From assembly GCF_026230175.1 (NCBI RefSeq), contig NZ_CP104208.1:62001-126000 (forward strand): a stretch of DNA of 64,000 nt. The letters are read 5' to 3'. Below, one piece after another: positions 2,679 through 64,000 of this stretch. Every line of letters begins with the position of its first letter. Positions within the stretch are counted from its first letter, which is position 1. Position numbers and translations under genes: made by a program. Below the pieces are notes generated by a model, which was not told where the DNA came from, searched no databases, and saw nothing but the letters and a program-made list of their open reading frames with translations. This DNA is from Desulfovibrio mangrovi (GTDB lineage: Bacteria > Desulfobacterota > Desulfovibrionia > Desulfovibrionales > Desulfovibrionaceae).

Positions 2679-5303
2679 ATGAGTGAAAAGGAATCCGGAA
2701 CTCCACCGCCACAGGTGCAGGATGCCGTTGCAACAGACCGGAAAGGTGGCAGAACTGTGCGTATGCCTGTTCGGGGCATGACCTGTGCCGTATGTGCCGG
2801 GCGGATCGAAAAGGTTGTGGGCAGAATGGAAGGGGTGGATTCGGCGAGCGTCAATCTGGCCTCGGAACTGCTTGATGTGCGATTTGATCCTTCTGTCCTG
2901 ACCCCGGAAGCCATTGCCGAGCGGGTGCGCTCTATAGGCTTTGAGGCGCTTCCGCCTGCTCCGTCCGTATCGGAAGGCGAATCCGACGTTTTGCGTTTCG
3001 GCATTCGGGGTATGCACTGCGCCGCCTGTTCCACCCGTATCGAGAAGGTTGTGGGCAAGATGGAGGGCGTGGAAAGTGCCGAGGTCAGTCTGGCAACGGA
3101 TTACGCCACTGTCCGTCTCGGCTCGGGTGTATCGCATCGCGACATGATAGACTCCATCGTGCAGCGGGTTGCAGCCTTGGGCTTTGAAGCCGAGCACATT
3201 GCCGAAGGGCAGGATGATGCTGGCTCCCTGTGGGAACTGCAGCAGGAAGAAACCAGAAACCGGCTTGCACTCATGCGCGCGCGCCTTGTGCCGGCATTTC
3301 TCTTCGCGCTGCCGCTTCTTGTCCTCTCCATGGGCGAGATGGTCGGATTGCCTATGCCGCAGGCGATTTCCCCGCATCATGCTCCGTTGACCTATGCACT
3401 CGTACAGTTGGCGCTGGTGCTGCCCGTCATGTGGTCCGGCAGGGATTTTTATCGTATCGGCTTCCGTAATCTGGCGCAGCGTGCGCCGAACATGGATTCC
3501 CTTATCGCCGTGGGTACCGGAGCCGCCTTCATCTACAGTCTGTGGAACACCGTTGAAATTGCATGGCTCGGACCGCACGCGGAACGCAGCATGCAACTGG
3601 TTATGGACCTGTACTATGAATCCGCAGCTGTGCTGATTGCTCTGGTTTCCCTCGGGAAGTATTTTGAAACCCGTTCGCGTGCCCACACCTCCGATGCCAT
3701 CCGCGGGCTCATGGAGCTGACGCCGGATACGGCCACCCTGCTCAAGGATGGCGAGCAGACGGTTATTCCCGTATCGCAGGTGCATAAGGGCGACATGCTG
3801 CTGGTCAAGCCGGGAGAGCGTATCCCTGTTGACGGTACGGTACTTGAGGGGCGTTCAAGCGTTGATGAATCCATGCTGACTGGTGAGTCCATGCCTGTTT
3901 CCAAGGATGTCGGGGAAACGGTTGCAGGCGGCACCATGAACAGGAACGGTGCGCTGACCATCCGTGTGGATCGCACGGGTGGTGATACCGTTCTGGCACG
4001 CATTATCCGGTTGGTGCAGGATGCGCAGGGCTCCAAGGCTCCCATCGCCAACCTTGCCGACAGGGTGAGCCTGTATTTCGTTCCAGTGGTCATGGGACTG
4101 GCATTGCTTTCCGGCATTGCGTGGTTCTCCAGCGGGGCGGACTTCACATTTTCCCTGCGCATTTTCATATCCGTCATGGTTATTGCTTGCCCCTGCGCCA
4201 TGGGCTTGGCCACGCCTACGTCCATCATGGTCGGTACCGGGCGCGGAGCGCAGTTCGGCGTGCTGATCAAGAACGGAGCCGCGCTTGAAGCGGCTGGCTC
4301 CGTGCAGACGCTGGTCTTTGACAAGACAGGCACGCTGACCCGAGGTATGCCGGAACTGGTGGAGGTTGTGGCTCTGGCTGATATGCCGGAAACACAGGTG
4401 TTGCGCTATGCCGCCTCGCTTGAATCCGTTTCCGAGCATCCGTTGGCGGAAGCAGTAGTTCACGGCGCTGCCGCGAGAGGGGCTGCACCTGTTTCCGTGC
4501 AGGATTTTCAGTCCGTGACGGGCAAGGGCGTGCAGGGCGTGGTCGATGGGATGCTGGTCCGGGTGGGCAACGCCAGTTTTGTGCTGTCCGATATTTCCGG
4601 AAATTCGAAGAATGCCGAAGTACTGCGTGCCGGAGAAATCATGGCTGCACAGGCGGAATTGGGGCGCACCCCCCTTCTTGTTTCCATAAGGGATATGAAT
4701 GCCGCCCCGCAGACCGCGAGGGCAGTGGCCGTGCTGGCCATTGCCGACCGGCTGAAGGATGAGGCGCCTGAGATGGTGCGCAGGCTTGAAGCCATGGGCA
4801 TTTCCGTGGTCATGCTGACCGGCGACAACGAGCGGACGGCCCGGGCGGTGGCTGCGCAGGCGGGAATCAGGAATGTGATTGCCGAAGTTATGCCTGATCA
4901 GAAGGACGGCACCGTTGCATCGCTGCAGGCTGAGGGAAAGATTGTCGGCATGGTCGGGGACGGTATCAATGACGCTCCGGCCCTTGCGCGTGCGGATGTT
5001 GGCATAGCCATGGGCACGGGCATAGACGTGGCCGTGGAGGCGGGGGACATTGTGCTGATGAAGGGCAGCCTGGATGGCGTACTCACCGCCATAGCCCTGA
5101 GCCGGGCTACGGTGGCCAACATCAGGCAGAATCTGTTCTGGGCCTTCGGGTACAACGTGTTGGGTATCCCTGTGGCCATGGGGCTTGTGTATGCCCTGTT
5201 TGATGGTCCCACCCTGTCGCCGATGATTGCAGGTGGTGCCATGGCCATGAGTTCCGTTTCTGTTGTGACCAACGCCCTGCGGTTAAGGTTCTTCAAGCCC
5301 TGA
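2679..5303 (+). CDS. copA: Copper-translocating P1B-type ATPase
   Basis: From this start the protein has 874 residues. There are two N-terminal HMA domains (GMTCAVC near residue 33, GMHCAAC near 111), then the P-type ATPase core: TGES in the actuator domain near 401, the membrane metal site CPC near 504, the phosphorylation motif DKTGTLT near 548, SEHP near 586 and GDGINDAP near 761. The CPC motif and tandem HMA domains indicate Cu(I) export from the cytosol. The neighbouring chaperone gene supports this. The start is uncertain: ATG codons at 2640 and 2643 are also in frame and none has a strong ribosome site. Confidence 0.9.
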
Positions 5304-12346: not shown

Positions 12347-12634
12347 TTCAGTCTCCTCCCATGTTACACAACCTGTTGTCCGATGGGGTGAAACCCCCTC
12401 TCGTCGCAACGCGATCCACAAAATACGGTCACACAATGCCACTCGAACGGTTGCCCAACACAGTTAAGGGCTATGGGGTGTTGATCATAGGCCATTTCTC
12501 CTTTTTTCAGGTTCGTGCGGTCTTCAGGCGGTCATGTGCTGTCATTGCCATGTCCGTCTGTGTACCGTGTTCCGTGCCCGGCGTTTTCGTATGCGGGGCA
12601 CTATGAGCCGTGGCCGTTTGCAATTCCTGTGCAG

Positions 12635-12659
12635 AACATGAATGTTGTCATAACATGTT
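12635..12659. promoter_or_regulatory. Paired inverted repeats with AACAT half-sites
   Basis: AACATGAATGTT at 12635-12646 is a perfect inverted repeat, and AACATGTT at 12652-12659 repeats the half-site on the same helix turn region. They lie about 290 bases upstream of the yeiH-like start. A regulator binding site is possible, but no known regulator is matched. Confidence 0.3.
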
Positions 12660-12766
12660 GAATGCCAAGGGGGTTCATCCATGTCATGATAAAAAAAGGT
12701 GATAACACCCAATAGCACTGATAAAAGAAGTTTGCACTATAAATGCAAACAGATGTTGTCGTTGGG

Positions 12767-12796
12767 GGAGGAGGAGGAGGAGGAGGAGGAGGAGGA
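12767..12796. repeat. (GGA)10 trinucleotide microsatellite
   Basis: Ten uninterrupted GGA units are flanked by further G-rich sequence. The tract lies just beyond the trmFO terminator and is outside any supported gene. Such tracts can change length by slippage. Confidence 0.9.
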
Positions 12797-12803
12797 GGGA
12801 AGT

Positions 12804-12836
12804 AAAAAGCGCCGGAGCTGATGCTTCCGGCGCTTT
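12804..12836 (-). terminator. Terminator of trmFO
   Basis: The perfect stem AAAGCGCCGGA/TCCGGCGCTTT with a nine-base loop is followed on the minus strand by T residues. It begins eight bases past the trmFO stop codon. Confidence 0.8.
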
Positions 12837-12843
12837 AATGCTT

Positions 12844-14190
12844 CTAGAGCTTTTCGCGAACTGTTTCGAACCATTCGGCGAAGTGCGTCCTCGCCCGTTC
12901 CGCGTAGAGGGCCTTGCGGTCCTTTTTCTTGGCCCGCATGCCGAGTTCGGGCATCAGGCCGAACTGGACATTGGACGGCTGGAAGTTCTTCTGCTCCGTG
13001 CGCAGGTGATTGAGCAGGCCGCCGAGGCAGGTTACCGCAGGCGGAATTTCCACTTCCTGTCCTCTTGAGCGGGCAGCGAGAATGATGCCCAGCCACATGC
13101 CGCAGGCTGCGGATTCCACATAACCTTCCACGCCGGTGATCTGACCGGCAAGAAAGACGTTGGGCCGGCTCTTGAGAGACAGGTCGTTGTTCAGCGTTTT
13201 CGGTGCGTTTACATAAGTATTGCGGTGCACGCTGCCGTAGCGGACAAACTCTGCATTCTCCAGCCCCGGAATCATGCGGAAAATCCTGTCCTGCTCGCCG
13301 TACTTGAGTTTGGTCTGGCAACCGACGAGGTTGAACATGGACTTGTTCAGGTCTTCGGTGCGCAGTTGCACAATGGCGAAGGGGCGGGTGCCGGTTCTGG
13401 GGTCGGTGAAGCCGACCGGCTTGAATGGGCCGAAAGCGAGAGTCATTTCTCCGCGTTCTGCAAGAGCTTCGATGGGCATGCAGCCTTCGAAGTGGATTTC
13501 CTTTTCAAAATCCTTGGTGGGAGCCTTTTCTCCGGCCACCAGCGCGGCATGGAAGGCGAAATATTCGTCCCGCGTCATGGGGCAGTTCAGATAGTCCTTG
13601 TCCTCCGGCATGTAGCGGGAGCCCCAGAACGCCTTGGTCATGTCGATGGAGTCTGCGCTGACAATGGGCGCGATGGCATCATAGAAATACAGGTGGGTGC
13701 TGCCCACGGCCTGTGCGAGTGATGCGCTCAGGCCTTCGCTTGCAAGGGGGCCGGCAGCGACAACAACGGCATCAAAACCTGCCAGTTCCGGCGCGTCAAG
13801 GGAAGCAATCTCCTGACGGACAAGAGTGATATTGGGATCTTCTTCCATGGCGCGGGTGACATATGCGCTGAACTTTTCGCGATCAACGGCCAGCGCTTTG
13901 CCTGCGGGCACACGGGTTGCCTCGGCTGCCTCCATGACAAGGCTGCCAAGCTCACGCATCTCCTGCTTCAGCAGGCCCACACCGGATTCCAGCTGGTCGG
14001 AGCGGAGCGAGTTGGAGCAGACGAGTTCGGCCAGTCCTTCCATCTGGTGTGCGGGGGAATACCGGTGCGGTTTCATTTCAAAGAGGGTGACAGCCACCCC
14101 GGCACGCGACAGTTTGCGCGCGCATTCGCAACCGGCGAGACCGCCGCCTATGATGGCCACCTTGGTGAGGGAACGGGAAGTATCGGACAC
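12844..14190 (-). CDS. trmFO: Methylenetetrahydrofolate-tRNA-(uracil-5-)-methyltransferase TrmFO
   Basis: The 448-residue flavoprotein methylates U54 in the T-loop of tRNA with methylenetetrahydrofolate as carbon donor. The FAD-binding motif VAIIGGGLAGCECA is near residue 11, followed by family blocks LVCSNSLRSDQLESG and FEGCMPIEALAERG and the C-terminal GVEGYVESAACG motif. The length is normal. The GTG start at 14190 is chosen because AGGAGG lies seven bases upstream; the upstream ATG at 14205 has no ribosome site and the longer frame is a spurious extension. Confidence 0.95.
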   Translation of the reverse strand: MSDTSRSLTKVAIIGGGLAGCECARKLSRAGVAVTLFEMKPHRYSPAHQMEGLAELVCSNSLRSDQLESGVGLLKQEMRELGSLVMEAAEATRVPAGKALAVDREKFSAYVTRAMEEDPNITLVRQEIASLDAPELAGFDAVVVAAGPLASEGLSASLAQAVGSTHLYFYDAIAPIVSADSIDMTKAFWGSRYMPEDKDYLNCPMTRDEYFAFHAALVAGEKAPTKDFEKEIHFEGCMPIEALAERGEMTLAFGPFKPVGFTDPRTGTRPFAIVQLRTEDLNKSMFNLVGCQTKLKYGEQDRIFRMIPGLENAEFVRYGSVHRNTYVNAPKTLNNDLSLKSRPNVFLAGQITGVEGYVESAACGMWLGIILAARSRGQEVEIPPAVTCLGGLLNHLRTEQKNFQPSNVQFGLMPELGMRAKKKDRKALYAERARTHFAEWFETVREKL

Positions 14191-57870: not shown

Positions 57871-59487
57871 TTATTCCTGAAAGAGTGCGGTCAGGCGTTC
57901 CTGCAGTGCCTTGCGCCGGTCATCGCGCCTCCGTGCGAGGGAGTCGAGCAGCTTGTCCGCGTTGGCGGCCAGCGCTTCCGGCGTGCCGCTGTTGTCCACC
58001 ACAATGTCGCAGGCCCCCATCTTGTCCTTCTCCGCCCACTGCCACGATTCCATGACAGCCAGCGTTTCCTCGCTCCAGTTGCGGTGTTCGGCAAGGCGTG
58101 CTGCGCGGATATCCCTTGGGCAGTTGACGCCGACGAGAAGGTCGGCATCCCCGTGCCATCCCGTTTCCAGAAACAGCGGGATCTCTGCCGCGGCAGCGGG
58201 TGCGTCTGCGTGCCGTTTCCAGAAATCGAGAAGATCGTGGCGCACAATGGGGTGGACGCATCCTTCCACTTCCTTGCGGATGGAAGCTGATTCGCACATG
58301 GCCTCGAAGAGAGCCCGTCTGTCCACGGGGCCGTCTGCAGGAGCAAAACGATCTCCGTAGCGTCCGCGCAGGAAATGCCAGCCGTCTCCGTCCTTGGCAT
58401 AAAGGGTATGCACGATGCCGTCTGCCGTCCAGACGGGGAGCCCCCGTTCTTCCAGCAGGCGCAGCAGGGCTGATTTGCCGCAGCCGGGCATGCCCGTGAG
58501 TACAACCCGCTGAGTGTGGGAGGAAAGGGCGGTGGCAAGCTGCATGAAGTCGTCCGGCGGGGGGCAGACAAAGCGCATGGCTTCGCCGGAGACGGGATGG
58601 GTGAATTCCAGTTTCCACGCATGCAGCATCTGCCGGGCGGCCAGCACGGCGAGAGGCGAATCATCAGGCACGCCGCCGCCATAGGTGGAGTCTCCCCACA
58701 GCGGATGTCCGATATGGCTCATGTGCACACGGATCTGATGGGTTCTGCCGGTATGGATGCGTACAGCAACAAGGGCGTAGTTGCCTGCGTTGTCGGCATG
58801 CAGCACGTGGTAGTCCGAGTGTGCCTTGCGTCCGCCCTGTTCCAGCTTCACCGGGGCCATCTTCACTTTGATGGTAGGATGGCGACCTATGGGCGTATCC
58901 ACTGTGCCGCTTTCGCGTTCGGGAACGCCGACGGTCAGGGCGAGATATTCCTTGTGCATGCTCCGCTGGGCAAAGGCCTGTGAAAGGGCTAGTCTGACCG
59001 CTTCCGTCAGGGCGACGACGATGATGCCGGACGTGTCCTTGTCCAGCCGGTGCACGATTCCGGGACGGAACCCTTCCATGGAGGCGAGTTCCGGAAAATG
59101 GTGGAGCATGCGGTGTACCAGCGTGCCGGAGGGGCAGCTGGGGCAGGGGTGCACGGTAAGACCCGCCTGCTTGTTGAGCACCACGAGATGCTTGTCCCTG
59201 TAGAGCACGTTGATGGGTGCATCTTCCGGAACCAGCGAAGAGGTGTCGAAATCGATATGCATCTCGATCTGCATGCCCGTGCAGACCTTGGTGTTGGGTT
59301 TGGTGCAGCGTCCGGAATTGACGAAGACCTTGCCTTCCTTGATGGCTTTCTTGACTCGCTCGCGGCTTATGGCGTGCTCGGTCAGGTTTTCCGAGAGGTA
59401 TTGGTCAAGGCGTGTGCCGTGCGCATCGCGGGAAACTGTAAGGGTGACGGTGTTGCCGTTGTCAGGATCGTCAATATAATTAGTCAT
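57871..59487 (-). CDS. Fused RluD-type pseudouridine synthase and dephospho-CoA kinase
   Basis: The 538-residue protein joins two usually separate enzymes. Residues 1-310 are an RluA/RluD-type pseudouridine synthase with an S4-like domain and the catalytic aspartate in HRLDKDTSG (D149). Residues about 327-530 match dephospho-CoA kinase (CoaE): P-loop GMPGCGKSALL at 332-342, then PLFLETGW and DIVVDNSGTPEAL. The kinase should make coenzyme A in the last synthetic step. I saw no stop codon or frameshift at the junction. The ribosome site is poor, and the gene is divergent from upp. Confidence 0.88.
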   Translation of the reverse strand: MTNYIDDPDNGNTVTLTVSRDAHGTRLDQYLSENLTEHAISRERVKKAIKEGKVFVNSGRCTKPNTKVCTGMQIEMHIDFDTSSLVPEDAPINVLYRDKHLVVLNKQAGLTVHPCPSCPSGTLVHRMLHHFPELASMEGFRPGIVHRLDKDTSGIIVVALTEAVRLALSQAFAQRSMHKEYLALTVGVPERESGTVDTPIGRHPTIKVKMAPVKLEQGGRKAHSDYHVLHADNAGNYALVAVRIHTGRTHQIRVHMSHIGHPLWGDSTYGGGVPDDSPLAVLAARQMLHAWKLEFTHPVSGEAMRFVCPPPDDFMQLATALSSHTQRVVLTGMPGCGKSALLRLLEERGLPVWTADGIVHTLYAKDGDGWHFLRGRYGDRFAPADGPVDRRALFEAMCESASIRKEVEGCVHPIVRHDLLDFWKRHADAPAAAAEIPLFLETGWHGDADLLVGVNCPRDIRAARLAEHRNWSEETLAVMESWQWAEKDKMGACDIVVDNSGTPEALAANADKLLDSLARRRDDRRKALQERLTALFQE

Positions 59488-61829: not shown

Positions 61830-61861
61830 AAGCCCCGGGCATATGTCCGGGGCTTTTTTTG
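61830..61861 (+). terminator. Terminator of uraA
   Basis: The perfect 9-bp stem AAGCCCCGG/CCGGGGCTT with an eight-base loop is followed by a run of T, 25 bases after the stop codon. Confidence 0.88.
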
Positions 61862-61931
61862 TTGCGCCTGTAGATGATCTTCTATATTGAAAATCTATCA
61901 TTCTATAACGTATGGCAAGCAGGAGGACGGC

Positions 61932-63542
61932 ATGGAACAACGCAATCATGTGGCGGTGTTGCGGCAGCATACGCCGGATGTGGAAATTCTCGCAGAAGAA
62001 CTGGATGTACAGGGCAGGGCCGCCAAGGCTGCGTTGTCGCTCACCAGAGAGAGGGATTGCAGTGAGATGGACGATGCGCAGCAGGGCATTCGGATGCATT
62101 GTCTTCAGCGCTTGCGGGAGGCCAAGGGTAAGGCAGAAGCGATTCTGGATCGGGAGCGCTATGCACGTGCCGAATATGCTGCCTTCAATCCGCTCGGCAG
62201 GCTCAAGGATACGATGCACAAGTTTGAGAGTGCAGTGCAGCATGCCACCTTCGGGCGTCGTAACGAACTGCGGAACAGCTTTGGCAAGGTCGTGGAATTG
62301 CGTATGCAGTTGTGGAAGTTACGGCAGGACAGGGGGTATGAGCGCGATCCTCAGCCGCAGGGAAATGTGCAGGCTGCAGTAGGCTGGCTTGTGGTGGCGG
62401 TGATTCTTGAGACTTTCTTCAACGGCGTTCTCTTCGCCGGCGGCAGTGAAATGGGGTACGTAGGGGGGCTGACGCAGGCCTTGTTCATTTCACTGGTGAA
62501 CCTGATCCTTTCGTTTGGAACGGGCTATCTGCTCAAATTGCGCAATGCCCTGAACGGTTGGCGCAGGTACGCGGTAACGGGCGGTCTGCTTTCGATGCAG
62601 CAGGCTATCATCGGTCTGGTTAACCTGAGCGCTGCGCACTACAGGTCTGCCGTAGCCGTGCTGGAAAGCTTTGAAAGGGCAAACCGGCAGTTTTTGAGCC
62701 GGGTGTTCACCCAGCCTTTTCAACTGGAGTCCTTCGAATCCTTCGTGTTGCTTATCTTCGGTATCATCATAGCCCAGTACCTGCTCTACAAGGGCTACAC
62801 CTTTGGCGATGTAGACAAGGAGTTCGGCAAGGTAGGGCGTGAGCTTGCCGAGGCGGAAAAGGACTATGAAGAACTGAAGCTGAACGTGGAGGAAGACATC
62901 AAGCTCGCCCGTGCGGATGCCGACCGTGAGGTAGGTAGGGACGTGGGCGACTATTCCCGCATTCTGGGGCTCTACAAATCCAGCCTTGCCATGAGCCGGA
63001 ACATCCGTGAGGAATATGGCCGCATTGCCTCTGAGTGGAATGATGCCCAGAAACTTCTGCTCAGACAGTTCAGACGACTGCTGGGAGGTGCCCCTACGGC
63101 CTGTCCGCTCCCCGGATATTGGGATACCTACAAGGATTTTGCAGAGGGCGAAATGCAGGTGACCTTGGATCTGACCGATGACGAAGCAGTGCTTGCCCGC
63201 ATGGTTGTCCTTGATGATGTGGTCAGCAAGGGGGAGGAGATCAAGCAGATCGTGCATCAGCGCGAATTGGAAGAGTCCCGTAGTCTTGAAGCGTTCTTCA
63301 ACAGCATAGAGCGGAAGAGGGAGAAGGGCGAGGACGGAGCCTCAAAGAATGCAGCCGGTGAACCCGGTGAGGATTCTGCCGGACCAACGGGACCCGGAAG
63401 CCGTTTCGATGCCGAAAACGGTAGCGATGCGGGGGATTCTTCGTCCGCAGAGTATGATGATGCCTCTTCTTTCAGCAGTGACAACGGCAACGGGCCTCAC
63501 GACGACATGGGAGACTATCATGGCCAGGCAGAAAGGATCTAG
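61932..63542 (+). CDS. Four-segment membrane protein with coiled coils, unknown function
   Basis: I do not recognise this 536-residue protein. The N-terminal 140 residues are helical and charged, followed by about four membrane segments (near 147-169, 177-203, 215-235 and 270-287). A Lys/Glu-rich coiled-coil stretch (about 290-330) and a helical cytosolic region follow, and the last 75 residues are acidic and Gly/Ser/Asp-rich. It has the general plan of proton-channel stators or signalling scaffolds, but no motif proves this. AGGAGG precedes ATG 61932. It overlaps the next gene by 23 bases, so the two are translated together. Confidence 0.75.
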   Translation: MEQRNHVAVLRQHTPDVEILAEELDVQGRAAKAALSLTRERDCSEMDDAQQGIRMHCLQRLREAKGKAEAILDRERYARAEYAAFNPLGRLKDTMHKFESAVQHATFGRRNELRNSFGKVVELRMQLWKLRQDRGYERDPQPQGNVQAAVGWLVVAVILETFFNGVLFAGGSEMGYVGGLTQALFISLVNLILSFGTGYLLKLRNALNGWRRYAVTGGLLSMQQAIIGLVNLSAAHYRSAVAVLESFERANRQFLSRVFTQPFQLESFESFVLLIFGIIIAQYLLYKGYTFGDVDKEFGKVGRELAEAEKDYEELKLNVEEDIKLARADADREVGRDVGDYSRILGLYKSSLAMSRNIREEYGRIASEWNDAQKLLLRQFRRLLGGAPTACPLPGYWDTYKDFAEGEMQVTLDLTDDEAVLARMVVLDDVVSKGEEIKQIVHQRELEESRSLEAFFNSIERKREKGEDGASKNAAGEPGEDSAGPTGPGSRFDAENGSDAGDSSSAEYDDASSFSSDNGNGPHDDMGDYHGQAERI

Positions 63543-64000
63543 CACCGGATTGAAGAGCTTGCTGAAGCGGGAAGGCCGTAAACAGCAATCTTTTCCGCAT
63601 CGTTATGAAGACAGAAGGCGTGGCGACTCCAGAGGCAGGAAGCCGGAACGCACCGGCAGCCTGAAAGGGCTTCCTGTTGTGGCTGCCGCATTGGTTCTCA
63701 TGGTTGCTCTTGGCGTTATATGGAGAGAAGTCACGGCCGCGCCGAAGACGCTTGCCTACCATCTTGTGTTGCTGCTTGACCGTTCCGACCCATTGACTGA
63801 GACACAGCAGCAGGAATTGCGCAGCATTATGCAATCTGTGGAGTGGGGCACGCCGGACGGCGGCAAGGTTTCGGTCTTTTATCTGGATAATATGTCCGGT
63901 TCGTATCTGGAACCTGTGGCGAGTGCCGTTGCCCCGCCGCGCCATCAAGGGAATTTGTTTGGAAACGAGCGGATTGCCGAGCAGCGTTTCAGGCGGGATT
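63520..64000 (+). CDS. Membrane-anchored protein, 3' end outside window
   Basis: The frame starts at an ATG 23 bases before the end of the previous gene, with GGGAGA upstream, and stays open to the window edge, so at least 160 residues are coded. The start is basic (RKQQSFPHRYEDRRRGD) and cytosolic. One membrane segment follows near residues 50-66 (VVAAALVLMVALGVIW), and the part beyond contains YHLVLLLDRSDPLTETQQQE and probably lies in the periplasm. The DRSDPLT block faintly recalls a von Willebrand A-type start, but I cannot confirm it. Confidence 0.7.
   Translation, partial: MARQKGSSTGLKSLLKREGRKQQSFPHRYEDRRRGDSRGRKPERTGSLKGLPVVAAALVLMVALGVIWREVTAAPKTLAYHLVLLLDRSDPLTETQQQELRSIMQSVEWGTPDGGKVSVFYLDNMSGSYLEPVASAVAPPRHQGNLFGNERIAEQRFRRD

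What the first reader, a model, noticed from the sequence alone, without database searches (positions are those of the whole stretch)
61932..64000. Unrecognised translationally coupled membrane gene pair at the right edge
A four-segment membrane protein with coiled-coil and acidic tail overlaps, by 23 bases, a second single-segment protein with a basic cytosolic start and a DRSDPLT motif outside. Tight overlap shows they work together. I recognise neither. A stator-like or envelope-sensing complex is possible (inference), and this is the best candidate for an undescribed system in the window.
Basis: partly seen in the sequence, partly recalled or inferred. Interest (0 to 1): 0.65.

Follow-up and report, generated by a model that had tools for sequence, protein, structure and literature searches.

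The report
Undescribed membrane sensor-like gene pair
Two neighbouring genes encode a conserved pair of inner-membrane proteins, one with a von Willebrand-type binding domain outside the membrane; in other bacteria the same pair leads a four-gene operon with a motor-like pair that can lie among virus-defence genes, so it may belong to an unknown cell-envelope sensing or defence machine.

Summary
The pair is real. Gene A (61932-63542, 536 aa): four membrane helices, long cytosolic helical hairpin, acidic tail. Gene B starts 23 bases before A ends and runs past the window to 64377 (285 aa): one membrane helix, then a von Willebrand A (vWA) domain predicted to be periplasmic; DRSDPLT is its degenerate metal-site motif. 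Pfam, NCBIfam, PADLOC and PDB sequences gave no convincing match to A or B. Co-conservation is strong: 71 of 72 genes upstream of B relatives match the A profile. In 24 loci (plasmids, two virus-catalogued contigs, some islands with defence-like genes) the order is A-B-C-D. C shows MotA-like motifs (weak support); D resembles ZorB/MotB (strong in one protein). Eight of 25 B-C loci carry a staphylococcal-nuclease gene nearby or fused to D; none of 58 A-B-only loci does. The window genome has A-B and no detected C; its closest relative lacks the pair, another has a split A, and the pair diverges faster than its flanks. Best reading: A-B is the sensing half of an undescribed Zorya-like envelope machine, standing alone here. 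Gene structure and co-conservation are shown, folds predicted; sensing and defence are inference.

The parts
61830..61855 (+). Terminator-like hairpin between the uraA-like gene and gene A, followed by a T run; suggests A-B is its own transcription unit
   Evidence: (L002:1830-1855): stem of 11 pairs, 8 G-C. The scan found 3 such sites against 2.4 expected in shuffles, so it is only suggestive.
61921..61926 (+). Ribosome-binding-site-like AGGAGG before gene A
   Evidence: Read from the sequence.
61932..63542 (+). Gene A, 536 aa: N-terminal helical domain, four membrane helices, long cytosolic helical hairpin, acidic tail
   Evidence: profile relatives beside B in 71 of 72 cases; AF2 model pLDDT 84.6.
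62367..62438 (+). Membrane helix 1 of A (residues 146-169), with an acidic residue at 160 (38 of 38 rows) and N164 (38 of 38)
62454..62546 (+). Membrane helix 2 of A (175-205), with invariant G175, G179, A183, N190
62565..62663 (+). Membrane helix 3 of A (212-244), weak by hydropathy in this protein, invariant R238 near its end
62733..62798 (+). Membrane helix 4 of A (268-289)
62817..63086 (+). 90-residue helix of A (296-385), first arm of the predicted cytosolic hairpin
63369..63539 (+). Acidic tail of A (480-536), 14 D/E and 2 K/R, mostly low confidence in the model
63509..63513 (+). Ribosome-binding-site-like GGGAG before gene B, inside gene A
   Evidence: Read from the sequence.
63520..64000 (+). 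Gene B, 285 aa, cut by the window edge (ends at 64377 in the genome): basic start, one membrane helix, vWA domain
   Evidence: 74 relatives; AF2 model of the homologue L020 B, pLDDT 89.1; vWA folds.
63667..63723 (+). Membrane helix of B (residues 50-68)
63778..63798 (+). DRSDPLT (residues 87-93), degenerate MIDAS-type motif of the vWA domain; the first D is invariant in 29 of 29 rows
   Evidence: distant relatives L117 and L118 have the canonical DxSGS.

Best explanation
A and B form an inner-membrane complex. B is anchored by one helix and holds a vWA domain in the periplasm that binds a periplasmic or cell-wall ligand, probably through a divalent metal. A takes up the change through its membrane part, which has conserved polar residues, and passes it to the cytosol along its long helical hairpin. 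The same pair is the first half of a larger, horizontally moving operon A-B-C-D in which C-D resembles an ion-driven stator (Zorya/MotAB type), with a staphylococcal-type nuclease in about a third of cases. In the window genome only A-B was found, as a stand-alone sensor module. Shown: gene structure, co-conservation, the wider operon and its neighbours. Predicted: vWA fold (model of a homologue), membrane layout. Inferred: physical complex, ligand binding, direction of signalling, energising by C-D, any role in defence.
For: 71 of 72 upstream genes of B relatives match A. B model is a vWA fold: Z 12.4 to 8s05_A and 12.2 to 4fx5; 17 Foldseek matches at 0.001 or better include several vWA chains. 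Metal-site residues D87, S209, D210 invariant in 29 of 29 rows. A keeps an acidic residue at 160 and N164, G175, G179, A183, N190, R238 in 38 of 38 rows. A-B-C-D in 24 loci; L111 D matches ZorB2 at 1.5e-27. Nuclease near or fused in 8 of 25 B-C loci against 0 of 58 A-B-only loci.
Against: No complex was modelled and no ligand is known. The window lacks C-D and the nuclease. Two-gene copies in Bosea and Maricaulaceae look vertically inherited, not defence-like. Homology of C to MotA rests on a 2% hhalign match, and many Zorya hits of C lie in coiled coil. G265 has B without A, G116 has A without B, G657 has C without A-B.
Confidence: 0.5

Rival explanations
1. A-B serves a housekeeping envelope or regulatory role (stress sensing, wall or outer-membrane upkeep), and C-D operons are a later borrowing of it.
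For: Two-gene copies form well-supported groups in Bosea and in Maricaulaceae/Hyphomonadaceae, and two Maricaulaceae loci (L043, L073) read side by side share neighbours. In the window the pair sits between metabolic genes.
Against: In the window's own genus the pair rang in 2 of 10 genomes, is split in one of them, and its proteins are 48-49% identical between G000 and G021 where flanking genes are 75-92%.
Confidence: 0.25
2. A-B alone is an energised machine: A is a distant ExbB/TolQ-type pentamer and B its vWA partner that transmits force to the wall or outer membrane, as proposed for membrane-tethered vWA proteins next to tolQ genes (PMC12204202).
For: Ten of the 50 structural rows for A are ExbB or TolQ chains, about 170-190 aligned residues, Z 7.4-8.5. 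A has a conserved acidic residue inside helix 1. The paper proposes vWA proteins as motor partners (section 8).
Against: Those Z values are within the tool's noise for helical proteins, and ABC exporters and designed bundles rank higher. B's helix (GLPVVAAALVLMVALGVIW) has neither the aspartate nor the SHLS/His marker named in the paper. Profile comparison of A with C found only coiled coil.
Confidence: 0.15
3. The window pair is a decaying leftover of A-B-C-D with little or no function.
For: Starred branches force at least 3 switches between two- and four-gene forms on the B tree. The G021 copy of A is split at contig ends with matching inverted ends, as by an inserted element. The window B and G021 B lack the two cysteines present together in 26 of 29 rows.
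Against: Both window frames are open over full length and keep the invariant residues. The two-gene group window, G021, G278, G306 is coherent (99/92), so this form has lasted.
Confidence: 0.1

Closest known systems
Zorya anti-phage systems (ZorA-ZorB core plus ZorC/D, ZorE or ZorF/G; PMC8565338, PMC11890865, passages seen)
   Same: The extended operon A-B-C-D has a MotB/ZorB-like D (L111 D vs ZorB2 1.5e-27), a C with MotA-like helix motifs and a long coiled tail, extra genes beside the motor pair, a nuclease in some cases, and some defence-like neighbours.
   Different: The window pair has neither ZorA nor ZorB. A and B match none of the PADLOC Zorya models; type III partners are DUF3348 and DUF2894 proteins. 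D has glutamate in its membrane helix in 20 of 20 rows.
Membrane-tethered vWA proteins next to tolQ-like genes, proposed force transducers (PMC12204202, section 8 read)
   Same: One membrane helix plus a periplasmic vWA domain, encoded beside a multi-helix membrane protein; in the extended operon also beside stator-like genes.
   Different: B lacks the aspartate of the pore helix and the SHLS/His marker; B is single, not in heterologous pairs; partner A has four membrane helices with an N-terminal helical domain and no sequence match to TolQ. The paper's own proteins were not compared here.
MotA-MotB / ExbB-ExbD / TolQ-TolR ion-driven stators
   Same: C has invariant threonines (T88, T120; 22 of 22) in two neighbouring membrane helices that hhalign lays on MotA TM3-TM4; D has one membrane helix with an invariant acidic residue and, in some rows, an OmpA-like end.
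   Different: Homology of C is not proven (2% probability); A-B is an addition not known from these systems; C-D is not found in the window genome.

Membership tests
vWA domain proteins (gene B) | vWA (Rossmann-like alpha/beta) fold | tested here: met
   Model of the homologue L020 B, pLDDT 89.1; Z 12.4 (rmsd 3.4, 156 aligned) to 8s05_A, 12.2 (rmsd 2.8, 160 aligned) to 4fx5, a vWA protein. The window B itself was not modelled.
vWA domain proteins (gene B) | MIDAS motif DxSxS with further metal-site residues | tested here: inconclusive
   Window has DRSDP, a degenerate form; D87 and S209-D210 invariant in 29 of 29 rows; canonical DxSGS in distant relatives L117, L118. Metal binding not testable.
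MotA/ExbB/TolQ stator subunit (gene A) | sequence profile match to MotA_ExbB or ZorA models | tested here: not met
   No such family at E up to 5 (P0001) or in the 25 families shown of 42 at E up to 1 for 28 A proteins in Pfam; no PADLOC hit for window A, and only weak coiled-coil hits for 4 other A proteins.
MotA/ExbB/TolQ stator subunit (gene A) | ExbB/MotA-like fold | tested here: inconclusive
   Foldseek none at 0.001; VIA-align 10 of 50 rows ExbB/TolQ at Z 7.4-8.5, within noise for helical proteins.
Zorya system (window pair) | ZorA and ZorB core genes | tested here: not met
   A and B match no Zorya model; no C homologue found in G000 (the tool warns an empty answer is weak). G000 has MotA_ExbB genes elsewhere (5 places), not beside A-B.
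Zorya system (A-B-C-D elsewhere) | ZorA- and ZorB-like pair | tested here: inconclusive
   L111 D vs ZorB2 1.5e-27; other C and D marginal or none; several C hits in coiled coil.
Zorya system (A-B-C-D elsewhere) | ZorC/ZorD, ZorE or ZorF/ZorG partner | not tested
   Not searched for systematically around the 24 loci; A and B are not matched by those models.
TMH-vWA transducers of PMC12204202 | conserved aspartate of a pore helix, or SHLS/His motif, in the membrane helix | tested here: not met
   Window B helix GLPVVAAALVLMVALGVIW has no D, H or SHLS; markers from section 8.
Anti-phage defence system | protection in a phage or plasmid challenge | not testable with these tools
   Only gene surroundings, mobility and divergence speak to it.

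The most novel reading that the evidence does not exclude
A-B-C-D, with a staphylococcal-type nuclease (free or fused to D) in about a third of cases, is an undescribed ion-driven envelope defence machine: the periplasmic vWA protein B and its partner A sense incoming phage or conjugating DNA, or the wall damage that goes with it; C-D supplies motor force; the nuclease cuts DNA in the periplasm. A-B as in the window is a separately inherited sensor or a reduced form of it.
Probability: 0.3. Interest if true: 0.85.

Novelty: new variant of a known kind. Interest (0 to 1): 0.62.

Why it matters
It names a conserved two-gene membrane module that none of the curated libraries searched here covers, and ties it to a four-gene operon found in alpha-, beta- and gammaproteobacteria, in the window's own phylum and on mobile elements. 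If it defends, it would widen the Zorya idea of a motor that watches the cell envelope, adding a periplasmic binding domain and possibly a periplasmic nuclease. If it does not, it is still an unknown envelope pair kept in whole groups such as Maricaulaceae. Either way a simple laboratory test exists.

Tried and rejected
Family libraries: Pfam, NCBIfam, PADLOC and PHROGs on A and B, Pfam on 29 B and 28 A proteins and NCBIfam on the 28 A proteins, PADLOC on 5 further A and 5 further B proteins, PDB sequences: scattered sub-threshold or coiled-coil hits only. A collection scan with A alone found nothing; the 4-row B profile then gave 74 loci. Profile comparison of A with C found only coiled coil, so no sign that A is a paralogue of C. 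Foldseek on A gave no match at 0.001. B profile in virus-catalogued contigs: none; one B and one A protein in phage records: none; the C protein of L068 in plasmids: none at 1e-6, although the B protein of the same operon finds 24 plasmid records, so single-protein searches with C miss relatives. The C profile in 395 genomes of the phylum rang in 3: G468 and G675 with A-B, G657 without. Literature: (words around Zorya, ZorF/ZorG, von Willebrand, stator, vWA/MotA/OmpA/anti-phage, four-gene operon, periplasmic nuclease) listed no paper that I could recognise as describing this pair or operon; only open-licence PMC papers are held and most listed papers were not opened.

Weak points of the nuclease link: the nuclease model was built from five of the eight cases; two (L024, L032) are weak hits in broken frames; one (L108) is on the other strand about 490 bases beyond D; many A-B-only loci are near-copies; no random-locus background was taken; the Fisher value 3.7e-5 used 55 A-B-only loci where the count is 58 and ignores kinship. 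Of the 58, 2 have under 3 kb downstream and 7 under 3 kb upstream. L170 (C without A-B) is outside the 25 and has no nuclease.

Defence neighbours were hand-picked: ten proteins from six loci; seven gave PADLOC hits at 0.001 or better, three none; several of the seven are helicases, which hit many helicase models.

Rows left out: structure alignments used 41 of 74 B relatives, and the window A plus 37 of 72 A relatives; near-copies and doubtful starts were dropped. The tree used 41 of the 74 plus 20 other rows. Misfits: L084's partner matches A only at 2e-5 and L067 has no A beside it; L063 and L088 have no upstream gene on their contigs.

Full report
What is there. The window is bases 62001-126000 of a single 3.95-Mb contig. 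At its right edge, behind a uraA-like gene and a terminator-like hairpin (61830-61855), lie two genes on the + strand. A (61932-63542) has a good ribosome site and 536 codons. B starts at 63520 and, read from the genome, ends at 64377 with 285 codons. The next gene, cmk-like, is on the other strand. The names uraA, upp, cmk, hisC and usp are my reading of the sequences, not library results. For A, hydropathy gives three clear segments and the AF2 model four.

Co-conservation. With B as query, 5 of 149 genomes of the family rang, and with A also 5 of 149; both occur together in 4 (G000, G021, G098, G134). A four-row B profile found 74 loci in named genomes, 9 of 297 genomes of the order and 5 of 297 of the phylum, the window genome included each time in the last two. 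In the 74 loci, 72 have a same-strand gene just upstream of B; 71 of these match a profile of A built from other genomes, 70 at 1e-20 or better, one (L084) at 2e-5; L067's does not match. Of the 9 genomes of the order, 7 have A beside B (in G021 split over two contigs); G265 has B alone, G105 a 141-residue B fragment; and G116 has A without B. So the pair is a real unit with a few exceptions. The spacing varies, so tight overlap is not a rule.

What the proteins are. B: 29 aligned sequences share D87 of the DxSD motif, S209-D210-M211 and N214. The model of the homologue L020 B (pLDDT 89.1, pTM 0.81) is an alternating beta/alpha fold. The best structural matches are Z 12.4 for 8s05_A (Sec23/24-like ArnAB) and 12.2 for 4fx5 (a vWA protein), with Ku80, Rpn10, CMG2 and integrin I domains close behind. 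Two distant relatives, L117 and L118, carry the canonical DxSGS. Two cysteines occur together in 26 of 29 sequences, are both missing in the window and G021, and only one is present in L084; this would fit a periplasmic disulfide lost in the window's lineage (inference). A: the model (pLDDT 84.6, pTM 0.67) has an N-terminal helical domain, four membrane helices, a 90-residue helix and a return helix, then a disordered acidic tail. An acidic residue at 160 and N164, G175, G179, A183, N190 and R238 are kept in 38 of 38. Foldseek gives A no match at 0.001. The second aligner lists ExbB and TolQ chains in 10 of 50 rows at Z 7.4-8.5, below designed bundles and ABC exporters; the tool says such values may mean only a common arrangement.

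The wider operon. In the six plasmid records that I opened (of 20 found; Sinorhizobium, Rhizobium, Microvirga, Paracoccus), A and B are followed by two more close or overlapping genes, C and D. D is annotated as OmpA family in three of the six and C once as a chemotaxis protein; the rest are hypothetical. A-B-C-D stands in 24 loci: 19 by profile, L020 and L115 with D read by eye, and L168, L169 and L171. L088 starts inside B and shows B-C-D. They include alpha-, beta- and gammaproteobacteria, three genomes of the window's phylum (G237, G468, G675) and two contigs catalogued as viral. C has invariant T88 and T120 in neighbouring helices (22 of 22) and D an invariant membrane glutamate (20 of 20). 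hhalign lays C's two helices on MotA TM3-TM4 in a sensible register but with only 2% probability; TolQ against MotA, true homologues, gave 53% in the same set-up, so the test is weak rather than negative. The best library match is L111 D with ZorB2 at 1.5e-27; other C and D proteins give marginal Zorya matches or none, and several C hits lie in coiled coil. I therefore call C-D stator-like, not a stator.

Nuclease. A staphylococcal-nuclease-type gene lies next to or near the operon in L107, L108, L109, L110 and L168 and, weakly and in broken frames, in L024 and L032; in L076 the domain is fused to the end of D. That is 8 of 25 loci with B and C, against 0 of the 58 A-B-only loci. The limits of this count are under Tried and rejected. 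Several free-standing proteins begin with signal-peptide-like stretches (my reading; no predictor was run), which would put the nuclease on the same side as B's vWA domain and D's C-terminal part.

Surroundings and history. In L116 the operon stands between arrays of regularly spaced repeats, 70 copies with a 36-base core, which I read as CRISPR arrays (no CRISPR or cas search was run). Hand-picked neighbours in L023 match type IV restriction enzymes (1.7e-94) and E1- and JAB-like proteins; two in L077 match PDC-M27 and Zac profiles; one in L032 a Hachiman helicase profile; one in L076 UvrD-type helicases; neighbours in L024, L108 and one in L023 matched nothing. In the two Pasteurellaceae loci the operon's third-position GC is 0.25-0.31 while the neighbouring frames are 0.35-0.58, as for acquired DNA. 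By contrast, A-B-only copies of Bosea and of Maricaulaceae/Hyphomonadaceae form well-supported groups, and two Maricaulaceae loci read side by side share their neighbours. On the B tree, starred branches force at least three switches between the two- and four-gene forms and the fewest is five. The window lies with G021 (100/99) and with G278 and G306 (99/92), all two-gene, while G098 and G134 of the same family sit elsewhere. So the pair has entered this family more than once, or been inherited unevenly.

In the window's own genus, 10 genomes were searched with the uraA-like protein. G096, 96% identical in that protein, has fewer than 170 bases between uraA and cmk, and comparison of the flanks shows no simple scar. 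G079, G057 and G120 have a different reading frame in that gap. A and B of G000 and G021 are 48% (A, residues 7-288; 33% for its later part) and 49% identical, while flanking genes are 75-92%. In G021, gene A is split at two contig ends that carry the same short inverted sequence, as an inserted element would leave (inference). No C homologue was found in G000; the tool warns that an empty answer is weak, but the same profile rang in G468, G657 and G675. So here the pair looks dispensable, fast-changing and without its motor-like half.

How it most likely works. Shown or predicted: a one-helix vWA protein and a four-helix partner with a long cytosolic hairpin, encoded together. Inferred: B's domain binds something in the periplasm or cell wall; A carries the change inward; where C-D exist they add ion-driven force or use the signal, and the nuclease may be an effector. 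A vWA protein working with a motor has been proposed for other proteins (PMC12204202, section 8 read, passages), but the markers named there are absent in B's helix. Zorya is the closest system by logic (PMC8565338 and PMC11890865, passages only), but the window pair lacks its defining core. In the stator survey PMC12505986 (passages) a search for 'VWA' found nothing.

Verdict. The pair is a conserved membrane module, undescribed as far as the libraries and papers searched show; B is a vWA protein; and elsewhere the pair is the front half of a larger stator-like operon. Its function in the window genome is not known; a stand-alone envelope sensor is the best reading, at about even odds.

Noticed in passing
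window 57871-59487 (-): A 538-aa frame reads as an RluD-type pseudouridine synthase fused to a CoaE-like kinase domain (my reading, no library search).
   Followed up: no
L002:9403-10617 (+), about 5.4 kb right of the window edge; L015:8202-9386 in G021: A solute-binding protein whose C-terminal part reads like a cytidine deaminase; the fusion is present in both genomes (my reading, no library search).
   Followed up: no
end of L014 and start of L015 (G021:C8 / G021:C36): Gene A of G021 is split at two contig ends that carry the same short inverted sequence, as an insertion element would leave.
   Followed up: partly
L076:9987-11627 (+): The D protein of Thalassorhabdomicrobium marinisediminis carries a staphylococcal-nuclease-type domain at its end.
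   Followed up: partly
L116:3221-7200 and 12365-14105: A-B-C-D of G468 stands between two arrays of a 36-base repeat, 70 copies in all, read as CRISPR.
   Followed up: partly
L170:6093-8460 (-): G657 has a C homologue with a D-like gene (read by eye; no profile hit for D) and no A or B in the stretch fetched.
   Followed up: no
L019:9520-10953 (-); L114:9130-9963 (-); L018:10252-10677 (-): Exceptions to the pair: G116 has A without B, G265 has B without A, G105 has a 141-residue B fragment.
   Followed up: partly
L168:1611-2153 and 4770-5240 (+): A virus-catalogued contig carries two staphylococcal-nuclease-type genes upstream of A-B-C-D, the second just before A.
   Followed up: partly
L023:13303-15839 (+): Downstream of A-B-C-D in Cupriavidus sp. 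amp6 lie an E1-like gene, an E2-like small protein (my reading) and a JAB-like gene; the E1- and JAB-like ones match PADLOC models.
   Followed up: partly
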